DNA of 64,000 nt from Salegentibacter echinorum. Lineage in GTDB: Bacteria > Bacteroidota > Bacteroidia > Flavobacteriales > Flavobacteriaceae. Below, piece by piece: positions 13,814 to 47,896 of this stretch. The translations under genes and the position numbers were made by a program. Location of the stretch: the NCBI RefSeq assembly GCF_900129445.1, contig NZ_FQVT01000001.1, positions 744,001 to 808,000 on the forward strand, in the 5' to 3' direction. The first letter of the stretch is position 1. The number at the start of each line of letters is the position of its first letter. Under the pieces are notes generated by a model. That model was not told the origin of the DNA and did not search any database. It saw nothing but the letters and a program-made list of their open reading frames with translations.

Positions 13814-14137
13814 CTATTTCAACTGGTCCAAACCGGGAATATCGGGCATTCCATCTTTGGCAACTGCTGCGAGTTCAGCTTCGTTAATTTCAGATGCTTT
13901 GTTTATAGCTTTGTTCAAGGTTAAAACCAGGTAATCTTCCAGTTGTTCCTTATCTTCAAGCAGTTCATCGGCAACGCTTATATTTTTAATTTCCCGGGTT
14001 GCAGTAATGGTAACTTTAAGTAAATCGTCACTGGATTTCTCTTCTAAGGTAACGGTTTTTAAACGTTCTTTTGTCGCTTCAACTTTTTCCTGGGTTTCCT
14101 TTATTTTATTCATCATACCCATCATATCTCCAAACAT
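13814..14137 (-). CDS. ybaB: YbaB/EbfC family nucleoid-associated protein
   Basis: A 107-residue DNA-binding protein. The Met-rich start [26 protein letters not shown] is typical, with helix 1 followed by a three-strand sheet ([27 protein letters not shown]) and a C-terminal helix of the tweezer-like dimer. In most bacteria it sits next to dnaX and recR; here it is alone. The frame is open upstream to 14230, but family homology begins at the ATG at 14137, and the extra codons are AT-rich leader. Confidence 0.92.
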
Positions 14138-14233
14138 AGTCTCTTTTTTTAAAATTGTAAATACAAATTTACTAAAATTAACATCAGGATTAATATCGTC
14201 CTCAATAATTATTGAACTAAAACAATTCATTGA

Positions 14234-14261
14234 AAGACTTCTCGACTGCGCTCAAAGTGGG
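14234..14261. repeat. Dispersed repeat fragment, CTTCTCGACTGCGCTC type
   Basis: AGACTTCTCGACTGCGCTCAA is a GC-richer patch in an AT-rich spacer. It resembles a short interspersed sequence common in flavobacterial genomes and related to the elements at 40540 and 48190 (CGACAAGCTCAGC, GTGCTGAGCGTAGCCGAAG). Confidence 0.5.
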
Positions 14262-14446
14262 ATTGTAATTTATTAAAAAACAATGCTTTATCTTAGTTCG
14301 GGCGCAGTAGAAACCTCCCTGATTTAAAAATTGGTAATTTCAGCTGAATCAAAAATTAATTCCTTATTATATACCTTAAAAAGCACAGTGAAGGCCATCA
14401 TATTTCTAATAGTAGGTTGAGTATTATGTATTTTACAATTAAAACT

Positions 14447-14454
14447 TAACTTTG
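14447..14454 (+). promoter_or_regulatory. -7 promoter box for the S9 peptidase
   Basis: TAACTTTG matches the Bacteroidota -7 consensus TAnnTTTG. Transcription would begin about nt 14460, leaving a leader of some 15 nt before the TTG start at 14477. No clear -33 TTG is present at the usual distance. Confidence 0.5.
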
Positions 14455-14476
14455 TGCGCGTTAAAAAACTGCAGAT

Positions 14477-16537
14477 TTGAAAAAAGAAATTTTACCCCCA
14501 AAGGCAAAGAAAATACCGAAAAAACTGGAAGCTCATGGCGATTTAAGGATCGATGATTATTATTGGATGAACGAAAAGGAAAATCCTGAAGTAATTGCCT
14601 ATCTAAATGAGGAGAATGCTTACAATGATAAGATGACTGCTCATACGAAAGATTTCCAGGCGCGATTGTTTGATGAAATGAAAGGGAGAATTAAAGAGGC
14701 AGATCAATCGGTTCCCTATAAACTAAACGGGTATTGGTATCTTACTCGGTTTGAAGAGGGCAAAGATTATCCTATATATTCTAGAAAAAAAGGTGATTTA
14801 GAAGCTCCGGAAGAATTGCTTTTTGATGTAAATGAAATGGCTAAAGATTTTGAATACTATAGCCTTGGCGGATTAAATATAAGTCCAGATAATAAGATGG
14901 TGGCTTTTGGTGTAGATAATGTAAGCCGTCGAAAATATACCATTCAGATAAAAAACCTGGAAACGGGAAAAATCTATAGCGATAAAATAGAAAATACAAC
15001 CGGTGGTTCTACCTGGGCTAATGATAATAAAACACTTTTTTACACTAAGAAGGACGAAAAAACGCTTAGGTCATATCGAATTTACAAACATATTCTAGGT
15101 ACCAATTCTACTGAAGATGAACTGGTTTTTGAAGAAAAAGACGAGACGTTTAATACTTCCGTGTATAAGTCTAAATCTAAAGAATATATCATAATTGGGA
15201 GTCATAGCACCCTCACAACAGAGTATCAAATTTTAAACGCCAGCGATCCAAACGGAGAATTTAAGGTTTTTCAAGCGCGGGAACGTGGTTTGGAATATGC
15301 CATAGCTCATTTTGAAGACCACTTTTACGTGTTAACCAATAAGGATAAAGCTACCAACTTTAAACTTATGAAAACGCCGGTAGAAAAAACTCAAAAAGAA
15401 AATTGGGTTGATGTGGTACCACACCGCAAGGACTATCTATTGGAAGATATTGATATCTTTAAAGAGTATCTGGTAGTAAGTGAACGTCACGAAGGCTTAA
15501 ATAAAATAAAAGTAATGCGCTGGGATGAATCTGAAACCTATCATATCCCATTTGACAATGAAACCTATACGGTTTTCACTTCCATAAACCCAGATTTTGA
15601 TACCGAAGTTCTGAGGTTCGCTTATAATGATCTAAGCACGCCAACTTCGGTAATAGATTTTAATATGAAAACCCGTGATAAAACCATTCTGAAAGAACAG
15701 GAGGTTTTAGGCGGTGAATTTGATAAAGATAACTATACCTCAGAGCGTATTTGGGCAACTGCGAAAGACGGCACCAAAATTCCAGTTAGTTTGGTTTATA
15801 AAAAGGGAATAGAAAAAAATGGAAATAATCCTTTGCTACAATATGCCTACGGTTCTTATGGCGCAACTATAGATCCCTATTTTTCTAGTGTACGCTTAAG
15901 TTTGTTAGATAGAGGCTTTATTTATGCGATAGCCCATATACGTGGGGGAGAGTACCTGGGACGGGATTGGTATGAAAACGGAAAACTTTTTAAGAAAATA
16001 AATACGTTTACCGATTATATAGATGTTTCAGAAGCATTAATAGCAAAAAAATATACTTCTGCGGCACATTTATATGCAATGGGAGGTTCTGCCGGTGGAT
16101 TATTGATGGGTGCCGTGATTAATATGGCGCCACAACTTTATAATGGAGCTATTGCGGCAGTTCCTTTTGTAGATGTCTTGACGACGATGTTAGATGATAG
16201 TATTCCACTAACTACCGGGGAATATGACGAATGGGGAAATCCCAATGAAAAGGATTATTACGAATATATTAAGAAATATTCCCCTTATGATAATGTTGTT
16301 GCTCAAAGTTACCCTAATTTGCTTGTAACTACAGGTTTACATGATTCGCAAGTGCAGTATTGGGAACCGGCAAAATGGGTAGCTAAATTAAGAGAGTTGA
16401 AAACAGATAAAAATTTACTTTTATTCCATATTAATATGGATGCCGGTCACGGCGGAGCTTCCGGGCGATTTGAAGCTTTAAAAGAGGTAGCCGAAGAGTA
16501 TGCTTTTTTACTGGATTTAGAAGGAATTCAAGGCTAA
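14477..16537 (+). CDS. S9 family serine peptidase, oligopeptidase B-like
   Basis: A 686-residue prolyl-oligopeptidase-fold enzyme that cleaves short peptides, probably after basic residues if it is true oligopeptidase B. An N-terminal seven-bladed propeller (to about 415) precedes the alpha/beta-hydrolase. The nucleophile serine sits in AMGGSAGGLLMG (about 537), the acid in TTGLHDSQVQYWEPAKW (about 622) and the histidine in DAGHGGASGR (about 656). The only start that keeps the conserved N-terminus (LPPKAKKIPKKLEAHG) is the TTG at 14477; the next ATG would cut 30 residues. A -7 box just upstream supports this start. No signal peptide is seen, so it is cytosolic. Confidence 0.92.
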   Translation: MKKEILPPKAKKIPKKLEAHGDLRIDDYYWMNEKENPEVIAYLNEENAYNDKMTAHTKDFQARLFDEMKGRIKEADQSVPYKLNGYWYLTRFEEGKDYPIYSRKKGDLEAPEELLFDVNEMAKDFEYYSLGGLNISPDNKMVAFGVDNVSRRKYTIQIKNLETGKIYSDKIENTTGGSTWANDNKTLFYTKKDEKTLRSYRIYKHILGTNSTEDELVFEEKDETFNTSVYKSKSKEYIIIGSHSTLTTEYQILNASDPNGEFKVFQARERGLEYAIAHFEDHFYVLTNKDKATNFKLMKTPVEKTQKENWVDVVPHRKDYLLEDIDIFKEYLVVSERHEGLNKIKVMRWDESETYHIPFDNETYTVFTSINPDFDTEVLRFAYNDLSTPTSVIDFNMKTRDKTILKEQEVLGGEFDKDNYTSERIWATAKDGTKIPVSLVYKKGIEKNGNNPLLQYAYGSYGATIDPYFSSVRLSLLDRGFIYAIAHIRGGEYLGRDWYENGKLFKKINTFTDYIDVSEALIAKKYTSAAHLYAMGGSAGGLLMGAVINMAPQLYNGAIAAVPFVDVLTTMLDDSIPLTTGEYDEWGNPNEKDYYEYIKKYSPYDNVVAQSYPNLLVTTGLHDSQVQYWEPAKWVAKLRELKTDKNLLLFHINMDAGHGGASGRFEALKEVAEEYAFLLDLEGIQG

Positions 16538-16723
16538 TTCAAAAAAATGCCTTAAATTTGAATGGTTTTATGATTTCTTTTTTTGGTAAAAGTGAACCTT
16601 AATAAGGTTCCAAAAGCTACAAACTTGCAAATTATAAAACTTTCACTGCTCAATTGAGCCATATTTTCTTCACTTAAAAGAGAATGTGTTGTTAAACTCA
16701 AATTTTGTAAAGAACTTCGATTT

Positions 16724-17761
16724 ATGAAAGAAGATTTGCAAGTATATGACAACGTATTACAATTAATTGGTAATACCCCATTGATTCACTTAAATAAAAT
16801 AACCCGAAACTTTAAAGGCACTTTTTTCGCTAAGGTAGAAGCTTTTAATCCCGGGCATTCTGCAAAAGACCGTATCGCTCTTTATATTATTGAAGAAGCC
16901 GAAAGAAAAGGTATTCTTAAACCCGGCAGTACAATTATAGAAACTACCTCGGGTAATACCGGGTTTAGTATTGCTATGGTGAGTGTGATAAAAGGTTATG
17001 ATTGTATTTTGGCCGTGAGCTCTAAAGCGTCTAAGGATAAAATAGACATGCTTAAAACCATGGGAGCTAAAGTTTATGTGTGCCCAGCTCACGTTGCTGC
17101 AGATGATCCCAGGTCTTATTATGAAGTAGCCAAAAGATTGCACGGGGAAACTAAAAATTCAGTATATATCAATCAATATTTCAACGAGTTGAATATTGAT
17201 GCTCATTTTAATTCTACCGGTCCTGAAATTTGGAAACAAACCGAAGGTAAATTAACCCACTTAATCGCTTGTAGCGGTACCGGAGGTACAATTTCTGGAA
17301 CAGCAAGATATTTAAAGGCTCAAAACCCCAATTTAAAAGTTATTGGAATAGATGCTTTTGGTTCGGTGTTAAAAAAATATCACGAAACAAAAGAATTTGA
17401 TGCCAATGAGATTTATCCTTATAGAATTGAAGGATTGGGCAAAAACCTAATTCCTTCGGCCACAGATTTTGAAATTATAGATCGTTTTGTAAAAGTAAGT
17501 GACGAGGATAGTGCCCACACGGCCAGGGAACTTGCTAAAGTAGAGGGGCTTTTTGTAGGTTACACCAGTGGTGCCGCTACCCAGGGTCTTAAACAGCTGG
17601 CTGCAGAAGGAGAATTCGACGAAAATAGCAATGTGGTAGCAATTTTCCCAGATCACGGTTCCCGATATATGGGAAAAGTCTTTAGTGATGACTGGATGGA
17701 GGAACAGGGCTTTTTTGATACTGAAAACGTAGAGGCAGAGCCTATAGAAACTATAAAATAA
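16724..17761 (+). CDS. Cysteine synthase/CBS-fold PLP enzyme, candidate cysteate synthase
   Basis: A 345-residue fold type II PLP enzyme. [10 protein letters not shown] (14-23), NPGHSAKDR with the Schiff-base Lys48, the substrate loop TSGNTG (75-80) and the phosphate-binding SGTGGT (about 183-188) are all present. It catalyses beta-replacement on a serine derivative. The variant NPGHSAKDR (rather than NPxxSVKDR of CysK) and the C-terminal extension past [13 protein letters not shown] place it nearer the cystathionine beta-synthase branch. The next gene is an alpha-oxoamine synthase; together they fit sulfonolipid synthesis, where phosphoserine plus sulfite gives cysteate. That assignment is inference from context; ordinary cysteine or cystathionine synthesis remains possible. 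Confidence 0.85.
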
Positions 17762-17795
17762 ACATATTTTGAATTTTTTCAGTAGAAAAATATTA

Positions 17796-17823
17796 AAAGC
17801 ATCCTCATCAACGTGGATGCTTT
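17796..17823 (+). terminator. Hairpin after the cysteine synthase-like gene
   Basis: Stem AAAGCATCC / GGATGCTTT with a 10-nt loop. The following T tract is short, so termination may be partial. Confidence 0.6.
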
Positions 17824-17853
17824 GTTCTATTTGCTGTTACTGAAGAAATAACA

Positions 17854-17885
17854 TTGTAAAATTGAGCCAAATTTAACTACTTTTG
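17854..17885 (+). promoter_or_regulatory. Promoter of the alpha-oxoamine synthase gene
   Basis: TTG at 17854-17856, a 21-nt spacer and TACTTTTG at 17878-17885 match the Bacteroidota -33/-7 pattern (TTG, TAnnTTTG). The start codon follows 22 nt after the -7 box. Confidence 0.68.
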
Positions 17886-17907
17886 CAGCTCGAAAAAATT
17901 TTGATGG

Positions 17908-19173
17908 ATGAAGGATTTATTTGATAAAATATATAAGGATAAGGGGCCCCTGGGAAAATGGGCAGACCAGGCTGAAGGATATTTTGTATTTCCAAAACTG
18001 GAAGGTCCAATTTCTAATCGTATGAAATTTAGGGGAAAGGAAGTAGTTACCTGGAGTATCAATGATTACCTGGGATTGGCGAATCATCCCGAGGTGAGAA
18101 AGGTAGATGCTGAAGCCGCTGCCGAGTATGGTTCAGCCTATCCTATGGGGGCCAGAATGATGAGTGGCCATACCCAAATGCACGAAAAACTACAGGATGA
18201 GCTGGCTTCTTTTGTTCACAAACAATCGGCATATTTGCTTAATTTTGGATACCAGGGAATGGTTTCTACCATAGATGCTTTGGTTTCCAAAAAAGATGTT
18301 ATTGTTTACGATGTAGATGCCCATGCCTGTATTATCGACGGGGTTCGTTTACATCTTGGCCAGCGCTTTACTTATAAACACAATGATCTTGATAGTATTG
18401 AAAAGAACCTGGAACGCGCCACTAAGATAGCTGAGCAAACCGGAGGAGGAATTTTACTTATTTCTGAAGGGGTATTTGGTATGCGTGGAGAACAGGGAAG
18501 ACTCAAAGAAATTGTTGAGCTTAAAAAGAAATATAATTTCAGGTTTTTTGTTGATGATGCCCACGGTTTTGGAACACTTGGCAAAACTGGAGCAGGTGCA
18601 GGTGAAGAACAGGGCGTGCAGGATGAAATTGATGTTTATTTTGCCACTTTCGCCAAGTCTCTCGCCAGTACAGGAGCCTTTATCGCCGCCGATAAAGAAA
18701 TTATTGATTATTTAAAATATAATTTACGTTCCCAAATGTTTGCAAAATCCTTGCAGATGCAATTGGTGATTGGTGCTTTAAAACGCCTGGAAATGCTTAG
18801 GTCTATGCCAGAGCTTAAAGAAAAGCTATGGGAAAATGTAAATGCTTTGCAAAATGGTCTTAAAGAGAACGGTTTTGATATAGGAACTACGCAAAGCTGT
18901 GTGACCCCGGTTTACTTAAAAGGAAGTATTCCAGAAGCTATGGCACTGGTAAAAGACCTTAGGGAGAAACACGGGATTTTCTGCTCCATTGTAGTATATC
19001 CGGTAATTCCTAAAGGACTTATCTTATTGAGAATGATTCCTACCGCTTCGCATACGCTAAAAGATGTAGAAGAAACTATTACAGCATTTTCTGCTATAAG
19101 AGAGCGCCTGGAAAATGGAACTTATAAACGCCTATCTGCATCGGTAACCGCTGCTATGGCAGGAAAAATGTAG
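17908..19173 (+). CDS. Alpha-oxoamine synthase, candidate cysteate fatty-acyltransferase for capnine synthesis
   Basis: A 421-residue PLP-dependent acyltransferase of the 2-amino-3-ketobutyrate CoA ligase/serine palmitoyltransferase family. NDYLGLANHPEV (about 52), GSAYPMGARMMSGHT, FVDDAHGFGTLG with the PLP aspartate (about 217) and TFAKSLASTGAF with the Schiff-base lysine (about 249) are visible. Family members join an amino acid to an acyl thioester with loss of CO2. In Flavobacterium and Alistipes a member uses cysteate to build sulfonolipids. Adjacency to the cysteine-synthase-like gene supports that substrate, but serine (sphingolipid) or glycine (KBL) cannot be excluded by eye. The usual KBL partner, threonine dehydrogenase, is absent. 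It has its own promoter. Confidence 0.85.
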   Translation: MKDLFDKIYKDKGPLGKWADQAEGYFVFPKLEGPISNRMKFRGKEVVTWSINDYLGLANHPEVRKVDAEAAAEYGSAYPMGARMMSGHTQMHEKLQDELASFVHKQSAYLLNFGYQGMVSTIDALVSKKDVIVYDVDAHACIIDGVRLHLGQRFTYKHNDLDSIEKNLERATKIAEQTGGGILLISEGVFGMRGEQGRLKEIVELKKKYNFRFFVDDAHGFGTLGKTGAGAGEEQGVQDEIDVYFATFAKSLASTGAFIAADKEIIDYLKYNLRSQMFAKSLQMQLVIGALKRLEMLRSMPELKEKLWENVNALQNGLKENGFDIGTTQSCVTPVYLKGSIPEAMALVKDLREKHGIFCSIVVYPVIPKGLILLRMIPTASHTLKDVEETITAFSAIRERLENGTYKRLSASVTAAMAGKM

Positions 19174-19196
19174 CATAAGATTATTTCAAAAATTAT

Positions 19197-19227
19197 AAAA
19201 CCGTTTAAGATCTTTAAACGGTTTTTT
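19197..19227 (+). terminator. Terminator after the oxoamine synthase
   Basis: A 12-bp stem AAAACCGTTTAA / TTAAACGGTTTT with a 5-nt loop and T6 tract begins 24 nt after the stop. Confidence 0.9.
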
Positions 19228-19322
19228 CTTTGGAATAAATCTTTGGGCGAACAAACAAAATGAAAAAAGGTATTTAAAAATTAAATAACAGTTAGTTAGG
19301 TTCTCATCTACAGCAATCCCAA

Positions 19323-20294
19323 TTAATTTTCGTTTTTATTTCTTTCATTTTGTTTATAGTAGCCTTTTTCTTCCAATTCCTGACCTCTTTGATCCCTGTT
19401 TCCTTCATAAGTATCTTCAATATATTCATTATCGTCGTGAAAGTCGAAACGATAAGAAACTCCGGCTGCTACTTGCCAGCGGGAAGGTGTATCTTTAAAG
19501 TTTACCAGCCCTGAAACATCTACCTGGAAATCTTTGGAAAATAAATAAGCTGCACCACCGCGTACAATGTCATCGGCATAAAGATCACTTATATAGGTTT
19601 GAAATTCGCCAAAAATCGCAAACTCGGGGGTAATGGCGTGAGTGAGTGTAAATATACCGCCATAAGAAGGATATTCTTCTGTAAATTTATCGGCTATAAA
19701 ATTCATAACTAACACCGAATTTCCCCAATTATGTTGGGTGATAAGCGCAGCTTTAGGACTTATCACAGATTCTCCTTGAAATTTATAAGGATTATCCCAC
19801 CATAAAAGATTAGCGCCACCATAAACAGCAACTGCGGGGATTAGCGTTCGCCAGTTAAAACGTTGATTGGCTTTCCAGCTATATAAATTTACTTTTCTTT
19901 CCGGTACATGTATTTCGGGATCAAATAGAAGAAATTTAGCTCCCAAAATATTAGACCTAAAGTTGGTGATGTCTGTTTCCTTCATAATTCCGGCTACTGG
20001 TTGATTGGTAAGCTGGTTTTGAAATGAACCTGAAAAATGAAGCTCCAGTATTTCGGTGAGTAAACCATAACGTACCTCGTAACGAGCACCAAAGATATCG
20101 GTGTCACTTCTTAAGAGATCGTGATTCTGGCTGTCATAATACCCCCCGGCTTCCAGTTGTAATACATTTTTCCCCACCGCATAGGCTCCCTGGGATTCTC
20201 CCGGACGGTTAGAATTAATAGTTTCTGTATATTGCGCATTGGCAGAGAAAATTCCGAAGAAAATAAAAGCGAGGCTGGCTTTTAAATAATGCAT
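19323..20294 (-). CDS. Outer-membrane beta-barrel protein, Phenol_MetA_deg-like
   Basis: A 323-residue exported protein. The ATG at 20294 gives a good signal peptide (YLKASLAFIFFGIFSANAQ); the longer frame to 20318 adds eight polar residues before it. The mature part begins YTETINSNRPGESQGAYAVGK, followed by alternating beta-strand pattern, as in the 'transporter' family related to phenol MetA-pathway proteins. It ends in a charged region (EDTYEGNRDQRGQELEEKGYYKQ). Function is unknown; such proteins are thought to form small-molecule channels. It is convergent with the oxoamine synthase and divergent from DUF4834. Confidence 0.78.
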   Translation of the reverse strand: MHYLKASLAFIFFGIFSANAQYTETINSNRPGESQGAYAVGKNVLQLEAGGYYDSQNHDLLRSDTDIFGARYEVRYGLLTEILELHFSGSFQNQLTNQPVAGIMKETDITNFRSNILGAKFLLFDPEIHVPERKVNLYSWKANQRFNWRTLIPAVAVYGGANLLWWDNPYKFQGESVISPKAALITQHNWGNSVLVMNFIADKFTEEYPSYGGIFTLTHAITPEFAIFGEFQTYISDLYADDIVRGGAAYLFSKDFQVDVSGLVNFKDTPSRWQVAAGVSYRFDFHDDNEYIEDTYEGNRDQRGQELEEKGYYKQNERNKNEN

Positions 20295-20377
20295 AGTAAG
20301 AGGTTTTTGTGGTTTCAAAGATAGTAGATTTATTATTTTTTTAGCAGGCTAATACTACGTTTCTCCCGGCTTATTTT

Positions 20378-20385
20378 TATTTTTG
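20378..20385 (+). promoter_or_regulatory. -7 promoter box for the DUF4834 gene
   Basis: TATTTTTG fits TAnnTTTG and lies 16 nt before the ATG at 20402. No TTG is seen at the -33 spacing. Confidence 0.45.
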
Positions 20386-20401
20386 CAAAAAGATTTAAGA
20401 A

Positions 20402-20677
20402 ATGTTAGAAGCTTCTTTTTCCGATGTATTAGAAACGATTCTAATCATTCTATTAGTATATTTTGGCTTTAAATTGCTAATAAAATGGTTTGGTCCACTG
20501 CTTTTAAAATATTTTCTAAGGAAAATGGGAAAACGCTTTGAACAACAGTTTAAAAAACAACAAAGACCTTCTTCGCAGGAAGAAGAAGGTAAGGTTAGCA
20601 TTGATAAAAAGCCTAAAAACCGCCGATCTTCCAATAAAGATGTTGGGGAATATATAGATTACGAGGAAATTGATTAA
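20402..20677 (+). CDS. DUF4834 family small membrane protein
   Basis: A 91-residue protein with an N-terminal hydrophobic segment (VLETILIILLVYFGFKLLIKWFGPLL, about 9-34) and a basic, Gln-rich cytoplasmic part (KKQQRPSSQEE) that ends in an acidic stretch (GEYIDYEEID). The layout, length and the terminal 'IDYEEID'-like end are those of the DUF4834 family of Bacteroidota. It often sits before a YfhO membrane protein gene, as here, which suggests a shared envelope role. No biochemical function is known. Confidence 0.78.
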   Translation: MLEASFSDVLETILIILLVYFGFKLLIKWFGPLLLKYFLRKMGKRFEQQFKKQQRPSSQEEEGKVSIDKKPKNRRSSNKDVGEYIDYEEID

Positions 20678-20738
20678 TTTCGATTTCTAAATCCTTTAAA
20701 GTATAAAAACGTTCAATAGATTATTGAAATCCGAAAGC

Positions 20739-20775
20739 AAATACCTCACAGGTCTCGAAGACCTGTGAGGTATTT
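20739..20775. repeat. Perfect 17-bp palindrome, ACCTCACAG family
   Basis: Arms AAATACCTCACAGGTCT and AGACCTGTGAGGTATTT around a 3-nt CGA loop, between two plus-strand genes. The outer ACCTCACAG matches the other copies while the inner stem differs but remains complementary. Confidence 0.85.
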
Positions 20776-20853
20776 AGGTCAAACATTCGACCTTAATGGA
20801 ATATTCATAGATGTTTTATTCTTCTAAAGAAAAAGTGATCTAAAAAATTATAG

Positions 20854-23298
20854 ATGGCCAATTTTAAAAAAATCCTACCGCATCTACGTGTTTTGGTAGG
20901 CTTCGTAATTATTTCCTTATTTTATTTTAGTCCCGTGCTGCAGGGTAAAAAGATTTTTCAGAGCGATATTGTGCAATATATCGGGATGGCTAAGCAGCAA
21001 AATGATTTTAGGGATCAAACCGGTGAAGAACCTTATTGGACAGATTCAGCTTTTGGTGGGATGCCTACTTTTCAACTCGGCGCATATTATCCACATAATT
21101 ATGTGAAAAAGCTGGATACTGTCTTACGGTTTTTACCACGTCCTGCCGATTATCTTTTTCTGTATTTTATTGGGTTTTATATTCTGTTATTGTGTTTAAA
21201 ATTAGGTTTTAGGCTTGCTTTCCTGGGAGCTTTAGCTTTTGGTTTTTCTACTTATCTCATTATCATTTTAGGAGTAGGGCATAATGCCAAGGCTCACGCT
21301 ATTGCTTATATGCCATTGGTTTTAGGCGGTATAATCCTCACATTTAGACAAAAATACCTGTGGGGTTTTCTGGTATTGGCTTTGGGAATGGCGCTGCAAA
21401 TTGGTGCTAATCACTTTCAAATGACTTATTACTTATTATTGTTGGTAATAACACTGGGAATCGCTTATCTTGTGGATGCCTTTAGAAAGAACAAGCTTCC
21501 GCAATATTTTAAATCCCTGGGAATAATGGTGGTTGCAGTGATATTAGCCATAGGAGCCAATGCTACAAATTTATTGGCTACGCAAGAATATACAGCCCAT
21601 AGTACTCGTGGGGATACTGGTTTAACGATTAAACCCAATGATGCAGATAAACCTGCCGCGGGATTAACTTTCGATTATATCACCGAATACAGCTACGGAA
21701 TCGTGGAATCTTTAAATCTGTTTATTCCCAGGTTTATGGGTGGTTCTAACGCCGAAAATATAGGTAAAGATGCTGAAATTTATGATGCTCTAATTAAGCT
21801 TGGAGCCTCGCCTGTGCAGGCAGCAGACTTAGCAGAAAACGCACCTACTTATTGGGGAGATCAACCTTTTGTGGGTGCTCCGGCCTATATTGGTGCTACC
21901 GTTTTATTTCTTTTTGTTTTTGCACTTTACCTCGTTAGAGGCCGATTAAAATGGTGGATTGTTGGCGGTAGTTTACTGGCTTTACTTCTTTCATGGGGAA
22001 AGAATTTTGGTTTCCTTACTGAGTTTTTTATTGATTATGTGCCGTTATATAATAAATTTAGGGCTGTTTCTTCCATACAGGTAATTATAGAATTATGTGT
22101 GCCGGTTTTAGCGGTTTTTGGACTTTATAAACTTTTTGATCCCAAACAGCAAAAAGAAACTAAACTATATGCTCTTAAATGGAGTGGAATAATTGTAGGT
22201 GGCCTTGGTTTAGTCCTGTTGCTATTTGGCGCTGCATTATTCGATTACAGTGGCGCAGGGGATGCCGCCTTAATTCAGCAATTGGGAGCCGATTTTGTAC
22301 GGGCGCTTAAAGAGGATAGAAAGGCAATTTATACTGAAGATATACTTAGGTCACTGCTCTTTTCAGGCCTAACAATTGCGGTTATCTGGCTTTATATTCA
22401 GCAGAAAATTAAACAAAACTGGGTAGTACCAGCACTTGCACTTTTGATTTTGGTAGATCTTATTCCTGTAGATAAACGCTATGTAAATAATGATGACTTT
22501 GTGATCGCCAGTAAAATGGATAAACCATTTTCACCAACGCAAGCCGATAAAAATATCTTGCAGGATAAAGGACACTACCGGGTTTTTGACGTTTCCGGAA
22601 GTCCCTTTAATACCGGCCGAACTTCATATTTTCATAAAAGTATAGGAGGTTACCATGCAGCCAAACCGGGCCGTATACAAGATCTTTTCGATTTTTATAT
22701 CTCGCAAAACAATATGGCGGTTTTAAATATGTTGAACGCCAAATATTTTATTGTTCCTTCGGAAAACGGAACGCCACAAGCCCAACAAAACCCAAATGCA
22801 TTTGGCAATGCCTGGTTTGTAAATGATATAAAATGGGTAGATTCGGCTAATGAGGAAATACTGAGTTTAAAAGAAACAAACCTTAAAAACACAGCAATTA
22901 TTAATAAAGAATTTCAGGATCAAATTTCTAAAGATTTTAATGCGGGTGAAACTGCTGCAATTAGTCTGGAAAGCTATCAACCTAATGAATTAATTTATAA
23001 AACAAGTTCTAACTCCTCGCAATTTGTTGTTTTTTCTGAAATGTACTATCAACCGGGCTGGCAAGCTTACATAGACAACAAGCCTGTAACTCACGTAAGA
23101 GCAAATTATGTGTTGCGGGCTATGAATATTCCTGCGGGAGAACATACGGTGACTTTTAGGTTTGAGCCCCAGGTAGTGAACACCGGGAGCAACATTGCCC
23201 TGGCAAGTTCTATAGTTTTGGTGTTAATTATTTTAGGTGGATTTTATTACAAATCCCGTAAAAGCAAATCTCAAATAGGACCGAAAGCTACAGAATAG
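20854..23298 (+). CDS. YfhO family multi-spanning membrane protein
   Basis: An 814-residue GT-C-like membrane protein. Roughly thirteen hydrophobic helices run from residue 14 to about 540, with an early extracytoplasmic loop carrying QSDIVQYIGMAKQQNDF and DSAFGGMPTFQLG, as in YfhO proteins, where a loop acidic residue is thought to be catalytic. The C-terminal periplasmic domain has the typical EMYYQPGWQAYIDNKPV and RFEPQ, followed by a final helix (IALASSIVLVLIILGGFYY). Family members add sugars to lipid-linked or wall polymers (for example lipoteichoic acid glycosylation in Bacillus). The glycosyltransferase and flippase genes that follow support a surface-glycan role. Confidence 0.88.
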   Translation: MANFKKILPHLRVLVGFVIISLFYFSPVLQGKKIFQSDIVQYIGMAKQQNDFRDQTGEEPYWTDSAFGGMPTFQLGAYYPHNYVKKLDTVLRFLPRPADYLFLYFIGFYILLLCLKLGFRLAFLGALAFGFSTYLIIILGVGHNAKAHAIAYMPLVLGGIILTFRQKYLWGFLVLALGMALQIGANHFQMTYYLLLLVITLGIAYLVDAFRKNKLPQYFKSLGIMVVAVILAIGANATNLLATQEYTAHSTRGDTGLTIKPNDADKPAAGLTFDYITEYSYGIVESLNLFIPRFMGGSNAENIGKDAEIYDALIKLGASPVQAADLAENAPTYWGDQPFVGAPAYIGATVLFLFVFALYLVRGRLKWWIVGGSLLALLLSWGKNFGFLTEFFIDYVPLYNKFRAVSSIQVIIELCVPVLAVFGLYKLFDPKQQKETKLYALKWSGIIVGGLGLVLLLFGAALFDYSGAGDAALIQQLGADFVRALKEDRKAIYTEDILRSLLFSGLTIAVIWLYIQQKIKQNWVVPALALLILVDLIPVDKRYVNNDDFVIASKMDKPFSPTQADKNILQDKGHYRVFDVSGSPFNTGRTSYFHKSIGGYHAAKPGRIQDLFDFYISQNNMAVLNMLNAKYFIVPSENGTPQAQQNPNAFGNAWFVNDIKWVDSANEEILSLKETNLKNTAIINKEFQDQISKDFNAGETAAISLESYQPNELIYKTSSNSSQFVVFSEMYYQPGWQAYIDNKPVTHVRANYVLRAMNIPAGEHTVTFRFEPQVVNTGSNIALASSIVLVLIILGGFYYKSRKSKSQIGPKATE

Positions 23299-45886: not shown

Positions 45887-47044
45887 ATGAAAAAACAACG
45901 CGGATTAAATACTATTTGTACGCATAGTGGGGAATTGGAAGACAAACAGCATAAAGGTGCAGTTTCGCCCTTGTATATGTCAACCTCTTATGCCTTTGAA
46001 GGAGTGGAGGAGAAGCGTTACCCAAGATATTTTAACACGCCAAATCAGGTAGGTTTGGCTAAGAAAATGGCCGCCCTGGAGCATGGGGAAGCTGCGATTA
46101 TTTTTGGAAGTGGAATGGCTGCAATAAGCACATCACTCTTCGCTTTCGTTAAACAAGGAGATCACGTAGTGTTTCAGAATACATTATATGGGGGCACCAG
46201 CAATTTAATTACTGAAGAATTCGATAAATTCGGCATAGGTTACTCTTTTACAAAAAATTCTAAACCGGCATCTTTTGAAGAAGAAATAAAGGAAAATACC
46301 AAAGTGGTTTATATTGAAACTCCTTCAAATCCTTTACTTACTGTCACCGATATTAAGGCGATTGCTGAAATTTCGAAAAAACACGGCTTGGTGAGTATGA
46401 TAGATAATACTTTTGCATCTCCGGTAAATCAAAACCCCATAGATTTTGGAATTGATGTGGTTTTACACTCGGCGACAAAATATATGGGCGGACATAGCGA
46501 TATCCTTGCAGGAACTGCGATTGCTACTGAAGCTCACCTGGATAAAATATTTCAGAAGGCTAAAAATTTTGGCGGAAGTTTAAGTGATTTTACCGTTTGG
46601 ATGTTAGAACGCAGTTTAAAAACACTTGGTCTTCGGGTAAAAGCTCAAAACGAAAATGCATTGGCCCTGGCAGAATTTTTGCAAAATGAAGAAAATGTGG
46701 CTAAAGTGTATTATCCCGGATTAAGTTCTCATCCCGATCACGAATTGGCAAAATCACAAATGAAAGGTTTTGGCGGCATGCTTTCTTTTGAATTAAAAGA
46801 AGGTTTAGACCCCGATCTTTTTCAACAGAAATTAAAACTGATAAAATCTTCCATGAGTTTGGCGGGCGTAGAATCTACTATGCTTTCACCTGCAAAAACA
46901 TCTCACGCGTTATTAGCTCCTGAAGAAAGAAAAGCGCAGGGAATTAATGATGGTTTGATACGTTTTTCAGTAGGCATAGAAGAAAAAGAAGACCTAATGG
47001 ACGATTTAAAACAAGCGCTGGAGGAAGTAAAGGTTAAAGTTTAG
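45887..47044 (+). CDS. Trans-sulfuration PLP enzyme, cystathionine gamma-synthase/lyase or methionine gamma-lyase type
   Basis: A 385-residue Cys/Met metabolism PLP enzyme. GEAAIIFGSGMAAISTSLFAF (about 63), the substrate tyrosine in NTLYGGTSNL (about 98), the PLP aspartate in MIDNTFASPVNQNP (about 180) and the Schiff-base lysine in HSATKYMGGHSDIL (about 204) are all seen. The family includes cystathionine gamma-synthase (MetB), gamma-lyase, O-acetylhomoserine sulfhydrylase and methionine gamma-lyase, which cannot be told apart by these motifs. Its neighbour bshB1 needs cysteine, so a supply role is possible. The gap to the next gene is 135 nt. Confidence 0.88.
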   Translation: MKKQRGLNTICTHSGELEDKQHKGAVSPLYMSTSYAFEGVEEKRYPRYFNTPNQVGLAKKMAALEHGEAAIIFGSGMAAISTSLFAFVKQGDHVVFQNTLYGGTSNLITEEFDKFGIGYSFTKNSKPASFEEEIKENTKVVYIETPSNPLLTVTDIKAIAEISKKHGLVSMIDNTFASPVNQNPIDFGIDVVLHSATKYMGGHSDILAGTAIATEAHLDKIFQKAKNFGGSLSDFTVWMLERSLKTLGLRVKAQNENALALAEFLQNEENVAKVYYPGLSSHPDHELAKSQMKGFGGMLSFELKEGLDPDLFQQKLKLIKSSMSLAGVESTMLSPAKTSHALLAPEERKAQGINDGLIRFSVGIEEKEDLMDDLKQALEEVKVKV

Positions 47045-47179
47045 AAATTAAAGAGTAGAAAGTAAGAAATGTGTTTCTTAATGTTAGGACAGGAAGTTTT
47101 TTTCGAACTAAGAAAGTGATTATTGCAGAAAAATAATTTCTGAATATGTGTTGTTCGATTAGAAGTGAAAAATAAAAGC

Positions 47180-47896
47180 ATGAAATTAGATATATTGGCG
47201 ATTGGGGCTCATCCCGATGATGTGGAGCTAAGTTGCTCTGGTACTATCGCAAAAGAAGTGGATAGAGGAAAAAAGGTAGGAATTTTAGACCTTACCCGCG
47301 GGGAATTAGGTACTCGCGGTACTGCCGAAACAAGAGAAGAAGAAGCAAAAAACGCAGCAGAGATATTAGGGGTTTCGATGCGGGAAAACCTGGAATTTAG
47401 CGACGGATTCTTCGAAAACAATGCAGCTCATCAATTAGAAATCATTAAGGTATTAAGAAAATATCAACCTGAGATTATACTTTGCAATGCTATTGAAGAC
47501 CGGCATATAGATCACGGAAAAGGAGCTAAATTGGTTTATGATGCCTGCTTTTTAAGCGGACTTCGAAGAATTGAGACTATAAAAGACGGTGAAAGTCAGT
47601 CAGAATGGCGACCTAAACAGGTATATCACTATATACAATGGAAAAACTTAAAACCAGATGTAGTGGTAGATATTTCCGGTTATATGGACAAGAAAATAGC
47701 TTCCGTTCTGGCCTATAAAACCCAGTTTTACGATCAAAATTCTAAAGAACCCGAAACCCCAATTTCCAGCAGTAATTTCTTTGAAAGTATAACCTATAGG
47801 GCAAAGGATCTTGGTAGGTTAATAAATAAAGAGCATGCCGAGGGCTACACCGTACAAAGATTACCGGCGGTAGATTCAATTTTCGATTTAATTTAA
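47180..47896 (+). CDS. bshB1: Bacillithiol biosynthesis deacetylase BshB1
   Basis: A 238-residue LmbE/PIG-L zinc hydrolase that removes acetyl from GlcNAc-malate, the second step in bacillithiol synthesis. The zinc motif GAHPDDVELSCSGTI (about 9-23) and DRHIDHGKGAKL (about 108) are the usual ligands. The ATG at 47180 (MKLDILAIGAHPDD) matches the family N-terminus; a GTG at 47165 would add five residues and is less likely. Bacillithiol is the low-molecular-weight thiol of many Bacteroidota, and bshA and bshC must be elsewhere. Confidence 0.93.
   Translation: MKLDILAIGAHPDDVELSCSGTIAKEVDRGKKVGILDLTRGELGTRGTAETREEEAKNAAEILGVSMRENLEFSDGFFENNAAHQLEIIKVLRKYQPEIILCNAIEDRHIDHGKGAKLVYDACFLSGLRRIETIKDGESQSEWRPKQVYHYIQWKNLKPDVVVDISGYMDKKIASVLAYKTQFYDQNSKEPETPISSSNFFESITYRAKDLGRLINKEHAEGYTVQRLPAVDSIFDLI

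What the first reader, a model, noticed from the sequence alone, without database searches (positions are those of the whole stretch)
16724..19173. Neighbouring enzymes that may make capnine-type sulfonolipids
A fold type II beta-replacement enzyme and an alpha-oxoamine synthase lie side by side (147 nt apart), with separate promoters. Known capnine synthesis uses exactly these two activities: cysteate synthase, then cysteate plus fatty-acyl thioester. The variant NPGHSAKDR loop and absence of threonine dehydrogenase near the second gene fit this use over cysteine or threonine metabolism.
Basis: partly seen in the sequence, partly recalled or inferred. Interest (0 to 1): 0.75.

Follow-up and report, generated by a model that had tools for sequence, protein, structure and literature searches.

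The report
Known capnine (sulfonolipid) gene pair

Summary
Observation and interpretation hold. ORF 16724-17761 (345 aa) passes the curated NCBIfam equivalog for cysteate synthase CapA (649 bits, cut-off 600). ORF 17908-19173 (421 aa) is 74% identical to a solved cysteate-C-fatty acyltransferase (28eh) and 60% to SulA of Alistipes finegoldii, but about 32% to serine palmitoyltransferase (SPT) and KBL. It keeps the lysine (K280 = SulA Lys281) published as marking sulfonolipid enzymes. Trees separate both proteins from CBS/CysM and SPT/KBL. The genome's KBL, CysM and CBS-like enzymes lie elsewhere; no SPT was found. capA and capB are adjacent in 76 of 80 named relatives, but in 0 of 17 genomes of one sampled genus. 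A terminator-like hairpin between the genes and a conserved TAnnTTTG element before each make separate promoters likely. CapA/CapB is a published pathway: a new member of a known kind. No lipid data exist here. Side leads outside the window: FAAL-ACP-CapB fusions; a glyoxalase-superfamily protein that in a 296-genome sample occurs only with CapB (40 of 40); an unnamed tandem-GNAT protein beside capB or SPT in many Bacteroidota, a candidate N-acyltransferase not found in this genome.

The parts
16724..17761 (+). capA: cysteate synthase (PLP, fold type II), predicted O-phosphoserine + sulfite -> cysteate
   Evidence: NCBIfam NF053679 CapA equivalog 649.4 bits over cut-off 600; 16-row clade 96/92; 66% identical to PDB 9k2p, which is named only as a PLP-dependent protein
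16847..16873 (+). NPGHSAKDR loop, holding the lysine expected to bind PLP (recalled for the fold)
   Evidence: distribution of the loop
17908..19173 (+). capB (sulA/CFAT): cysteate fatty-acyltransferase making 3-ketocapnine
   Evidence: 74% to PDB 28eh, 60% to 7u7h, 32% to SPT, 31% to KBL; CapB clade SH-aLRT 100
18655..18657 (+). codon of Lys250, PLP Schiff-base lysine (SulA Lys251)
   Evidence: role from PMC9304779
18745..18747 (+). codon of Lys280, the CapB/SulA marker residue (SulA Lys281; Ala in the SPT-like rows, Asn in the KBL rows)
   Evidence: Lys in 135 of 146 aligned rows; the 11 others are the 9 SPT-like and 2 KBL rows
16553..16560 (+). TAAATTTG, candidate -7 promoter element of capA, 15 nt after the stop of the S9 peptidase gene
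   Evidence: element in 66 of 71 capA upstream regions
17796..17823 (+). terminator-like hairpin between capA and capB
   Evidence: in 40 of 70 gaps of at least 80 nt; shuffles mean 3.6, largest 8
17878..17885 (+). TACTTTTG, candidate -7 promoter element of capB, 22 nt before the ATG
   Evidence: element in 67 of 75 capB upstream regions
19197..19225 (+). terminator-like hairpin after capB (13 pairs, also listed on the - strand)

Best explanation
The two genes are capA and capB of the capnine/sulfonolipid pathway. CapA replaces the phosphate of O-phospho-L-serine by sulfite to give L-cysteate. CapB condenses cysteate with a fatty-acyl thioester (acyl-ACP in the studied homologue), releasing CO2, to give 3-ketocapnine. 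A reductase encoded elsewhere would then give capnine, which may be N-acylated to sulfobacin-type lipids of the outer membrane that support gliding. Shown here by sequence: family membership, catalytic and marker residues, conserved pairing, separate expression signals. Inferred from published homologues: substrates, reactions, outer-membrane and gliding role. Not shown: identity of reductase and N-acyltransferase, lipid production.
For: CapA equivalog over cut-off; of 296 sampled genomes of the phylum only the 30 of the same family pass it, and 0 of 14 control genomes ring. CapB's best matches are cysteate acyltransferase structures. Lys250 and Lys280 kept (PMC9304779 sections). Trees. Own-genome paralogues account for the rival functions: KBL over cut-off (703.9 vs 493), CysM over cut-off (474.7 vs 413), CBS-like L004 in the sister clade. 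No SPT in the own genome at E 1e-90 and no alpha-oxoamine synthase beside KBL at E 1e-5. Pair adjacent in 76 of 80 named relatives. GldJ over cut-off in the genome.
Against: No lipidomics and no enzyme assay for this organism. No characterised CapA sequence was available for the tree. CapA's closest paralogue (L004) is 55-56% identical, so overlap in substrate use cannot be excluded by sequence. No certain 3-ketocapnine reductase: the best candidate scores 275 bits against a cut-off of 400. The pair is split in 17 of 17 genomes of genus g2 and in G088.
Confidence: 0.93

Rival explanations
1. ORF2 is a serine palmitoyltransferase making ordinary sphingolipids, and ORF1 an unrelated cysteine/cystathionine synthase.
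For: Same superfamilies; SPT is the best NCBIfam match of ORF2, though far under its cut-off (294.7 vs 640 bits).
Against: 32% identity to SPT vs 60-74% to cysteate acyltransferases; separate clades; Lys280 instead of Ala; ORF1 passes CapA and no CysK/CysM/CBS cut-off.
Confidence: 0.02
2. ORF2 is KBL/glycine C-acetyltransferase or BioF and ORF1 a cysteine synthase: plain amino-acid metabolism.
For: Shared folds only.
Against: A KBL over cut-off (L002) and a CysM over cut-off (L005) are encoded elsewhere; ORF2 scores under every KBL and BioF cut-off.
Confidence: 0.01
3. The pair makes capnine, but capnine is not N-acylated here, so the end product is free capnine rather than sulfobacin-type lipids.
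For: A tandem-GNAT family that is a candidate N-acyltransferase is found in 28 of 30 sampled genomes of the family but not in this one.
Against: The GNAT's function is unproven, and 22 CapB-bearing genomes without SPT in other families also lack it at E 1e-30, so another N-acyltransferase may exist.
Confidence: 0.15

Closest known systems
CapA-CapB of Capnocytophaga ochracea (C7M8J5/ACU93374.1 and C7M8J6/ACU93375.1; Liu et al. 2022, known here from citing passages only)
   Same: Same two activities; consecutive accessions there suggest the same adjacency (passages of PMC12927429, and PMC10191378). CapA cut-off passed here.
   Different: Different species; their sequences were not compared directly here. 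In the window the genes are separated by a terminator-like hairpin and capB has its own promoter-like element.
SulA, Alistipes finegoldii alfi_1224 (PDB 7u7h)
   Same: 60% identity over 416 aa, catalytic Lys and Lys281 kept.
   Different: Alistipes uses an archaeal-type cysteate synthase instead of CapA, according to a passage of PMC10191378.
Cysteate-C-fatty acyltransferase, PDB 28eh
   Same: 74% identity over 417 aa.
Fjoh_2419 of Flavobacterium johnsoniae
   Same: Needed for sulfonolipid synthesis (passages of PMC12045153); called a close relative of alfi_1224, and an F. johnsoniae SulA is in the Lys281 alignment.
   Different: In the 17 sampled g2 genomes (probably Flavobacterium, my inference) capB is not next to capA.

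Membership tests
CapA cysteate synthase | Score over the curated equivalog cut-off NF053679 | tested here: met
   649.4 bits vs 600
CapA cysteate synthase | Phylogenetic placement apart from CBS/CysK/CysM, with CapA | tested here: met
   16-row clade, 96/92, own CBS-like paralogue outside; no characterised CapA sequence in the tree, so the clade is named after model-passing members
CapA cysteate synthase | Makes cysteate from O-phosphoserine and sulfite | not testable with these tools
   needs enzyme assay
CapB/SulA cysteate acyltransferase | PLP lysine and the His/Asp/His/Asn/Arg active-site set | tested here: met
   N52, H139, D216, H219, K250, R375 all present
CapB/SulA cysteate acyltransferase | Lys281 (SulA numbering) where SPT has Ala | tested here: met
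   K280 in the window protein
CapB/SulA cysteate acyltransferase | Clusters with characterised SulA/CFAT and not with SPT/KBL | tested here: met
   33-row clade, SH-aLRT 100 (quick method); that output warns of long branches meeting
CapB/SulA cysteate acyltransferase | Uses cysteate and acyl-ACP/CoA | not testable with these tools
   needs enzyme assay
Serine palmitoyltransferase | Score over the curated SPT cut-offs | tested here: not met
   294.7 vs 640, 273.6 vs 500, 199.1 vs 670
KBL / glycine C-acetyltransferase | Score over the curated cut-offs | tested here: not met
   282.9 vs 460, 239.6 vs 493
Complete capnine pathway in this genome | 3-ketocapnine reductase (CapC/KCR) present | tested here: inconclusive
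   best SDR C28:344253-345044, 275.4 bits vs cut-off 400; this model also rings in 13 of 14 control genomes

The most novel reading that the evidence does not exclude
The unnamed tandem-GNAT family that faces capB in many Flavobacteriaceae, and lies next to SPT in other Bacteroidota, is the missing N-acyltransferase of capnine and sphinganine; its absence from the window's genome (and from one other of 30 sampled family members) leaves free capnine as the main sulfonolipid.
Probability: 0.15. Interest if true: 0.55.

Novelty: new member of a known kind. Interest (0 to 1): 0.22.

Why it matters
Sulfonolipids are outer-membrane lipids of Bacteroidota (PMC9304779, abstract) linked to gliding, to inflammation in mouse models and to choanoflagellate development (introduction of PMC11211663). 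The window adds a clear genomic case in a relative of Salegentibacter and suggests that the two genes are transcribed apart. The wider survey gives three testable leads on less known parts of the pathway: possible self-loading fusion enzymes, a glyoxalase-superfamily partner, and a candidate N-acyltransferase.

Tried and rejected
Rejected: SPT, KBL/BioF and CysK/CysM/CBS identities. Rejected: a shared regulatory motif upstream of both genes. TTGAGCCAWATTT has 2 sites in the window, both exact; allowing one mismatch, 21 of 100 shuffles had at least 2, which does not test exact matches. It is not kept in relatives: TTGAGCC is in 1 of 72 capA and 2 of 84 capB upstream regions.

Tried without a firm result: a conserved capA leader hairpin. 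Leaders fold better than controls (mean z -1.49 in 59 capA leaders; capB -0.29 in 46; S9 peptidase gene 0.13 in 26; other ORFs -0.84 in 17), but a consensus fold of 16 gave no pair and Rfam gave nothing for 14000-21000. A -33 TTG box at a fixed distance was not found. Sigma-70 scan: at chance. Viral contigs: 2 CapB-like loci only.

Against my own side lead: members of the GNAT family over 280 bits also occur in 21 sampled genomes without CapB (my count from the list), so the family is not specific to capnine; in family f2 it is not next to capB in any of 6 genomes.

Papers: PMC9364336 and PMC9275813 (the F. johnsoniae and C. gleum enzyme papers) are not held; I know them from citations only. 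The Caulobacter ceramide synthase, to which the GNAT family might be related, was not compared; only passages of PMC11334938 were seen.

Full report
Observation. Pfam gives PALP and Aminotran_1_2. The window is G000:C28:744001-808000 of a 3.96-Mb genome in 40 contigs; the nearest named relative by CapB is Salegentibacter lacus (95%).

ORF1. Of 38 NCBIfam families matched (the best 25 listed), only CapA cysteate synthase is over its cut-off (649.4 vs 600) among those listed; CBS, CysK and CysM are under theirs. The nearest solved chain, 9k2p (named only as a PLP-dependent protein), is 66% identical; two CBS chains are at 43-44% and E. coli CysM at 33%. In a maximum-likelihood tree of 33 rows ORF1 lies in a 16-row clade (96/92) beside a 12-row clade of bacteroidotal CBS-like enzymes (91/85) that holds the genome's own paralogue L004 (long branches flagged for L005, L006 and 5ohx). 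No characterised CapA sequence was in the tree. GHS is in the loop of 92 of 102 CapA-like sequences (divided by identity, not by the tree; one of the 102 had no such loop) and of 2 of 12 CBS-like ones.

ORF2. Nearest solved chains are 28eh (named cysteate-C-fatty acyltransferase, 74%) and 7u7h (SulA, 60%); SPT is 32% and KBL 31%. In a 44-row tree, 33 CapB-like rows form one clade (SH-aLRT 100), apart from 9 SPT-like and 2 KBL rows (quick method, long-branch warning). The lysine that PMC9304779 gives as the mark of cysteate acyltransferases (outline and four sections read) is K280 here. It is present in 135 of 146 aligned rows, and the 11 others are exactly the SPT-like and KBL rows (the rows include duplicates of some loci and of the window protein).

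The rest of the genome. The only other alpha-oxoamine synthase at E <= 1e-5 is a KBL over its cut-off. CysM and a SbnA-like PALP are over their cut-offs; L004 is CBS-like but under all cut-offs. No SPT at E <= 1e-90. So the rival functions are covered elsewhere, and CapB is the only sphingoid-type condensing enzyme found. Third step: 11 SDR matches, the best at 275 bits against a cut-off of 400, which is no identification. GldJ is over its cut-off (933.6 vs 458.2), so gliding is plausible. Three weak matches to the APS reductase model, all under cut-off, leave the sulfite source open.

Conservation. In a sample of 296 genomes of the phylum, CapA is over cut-off in 30, all of the same family, and 0 of 14 control genomes ring. 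Reading positions: capA and capB are adjacent in 12 of 13 family genomes outside genus g2, in 0 of 17 of g2, in 6 of 6 of family f2 (CapA-like at 541-552 bits, under cut-off) and in G037. Among 80 named loci, 76 carry capA upstream of capB; two of the other four are cut by the contig end. Gaps by ORF-caller starts range from -50 to 503 nt; five loci overlap by 1-4 nt.

Expression. TAnnTTTG (the Bacteroidota -7 element, recalled) is upstream of capA in 66 of 71 regions and of capB in 67 of 75, against 2 and 13 on the other strand and means of 5.1 and 9.5 (largest 10 and 18) in mononucleotide shuffles. A terminator-like hairpin lies between the genes in 40 of 70 gaps of at least 80 nt (shuffles mean 3.6, largest 8), and in the window (z -6.06). 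Relatedness of the loci inflates these counts.

Known or new. CapA, CapB and CapC are published (passages of PMC10191378; PMC11211663 parts 1-3 of 5; passages of PMC12927429). C. ochracea CapA and CapB have consecutive accessions. The pair in the window is a new member of a known kind.

Side leads outside the window. (a) Three genomes fuse AMP-binding, ACP and CapB-like domains in proteins of 1108-1143 aa that keep the marker lysine: candidate self-loading cysteate acyltransferases. (b) A 350-aa glyoxalase-superfamily protein overlaps or follows capB directly in G158, G064, G254 and G219, and lies about 1 kb after it in G179. 40 of 296 genomes have it (one match partial, one weak at 33% identity), and all 40 are among the 108 with CapB. 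Of the 40, 26 are from one family, so the chance estimates are inflated; the 14 others are also all CapB-bearing. It is not found in G000 at E <= 1e-20. (c) A tandem-GNAT protein (AlphaFold mean pLDDT 85; Foldseek top hits are GNAT N-acetyltransferases, several of them tandem, at 10-15% identity), without an NCBIfam name, faces capB in 46 of 80 named loci; 31 others have at least 2 kb downstream held and lack it there. It occurs in 219 of 224 SPT genomes, 39 of 63 with CapB but no SPT, and 3 of 9 with neither. Homologues lie directly beside SPT in at least 19 genomes (positions; lists truncated). It is not found in G000 or G053 (E <= 0.01). It is a candidate N-acyltransferase, no more.

Noticed in passing
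L065 2145-5576 (+), L066 3571-6897 (-), L067 2472-5852 (+): AMP-binding (FAAL-like) - ACP - CapB-like fusion proteins of 1108-1143 aa in three families, all keeping the Lys281-equivalent: possible self-loading cysteate acyltransferases.
   Followed up: partly
L056 4115-5155 and the 296-genome sample: A 350-aa glyoxalase/dioxygenase-superfamily protein overlaps, follows or lies within about 1 kb of capB in five sampled genomes and in the sample occurs only in CapB-bearing genomes (40 of 40); function unknown.
   Followed up: partly
L056 2099-2893: An SDR ORF overlaps the called start of capB by 4 nt: a candidate 3-ketocapnine reductase in that lineage.
   Followed up: partly
L071 5331-6473 (-) and 45 other named loci: Unnamed tandem-GNAT protein convergent with capB; homologues lie beside SPT in other families; not found in the window's genome. 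Candidate capnine/sphinganine N-acyltransferase.
   Followed up: partly
window 16553-16723 and capA leaders of 59 relatives: capA leaders tend to fold into a hairpin of changing sequence at a similar position; statistics moderate, no consensus structure obtained.
   Followed up: partly
L148 2956-4272: A CapB/SulA gene nearest to that of Alistipes on an IMG/VR contig, flanked by ORFs that look like tyrosine recombinases by eye (not searched).
   Followed up: no
window 47165-47896: Bacillithiol deacetylase BshB1, over its cut-off, beside a Cys/Met-metabolism PLP enzyme at 45887-47044 that is under the cut-offs of all 25 families listed.
   Followed up: no
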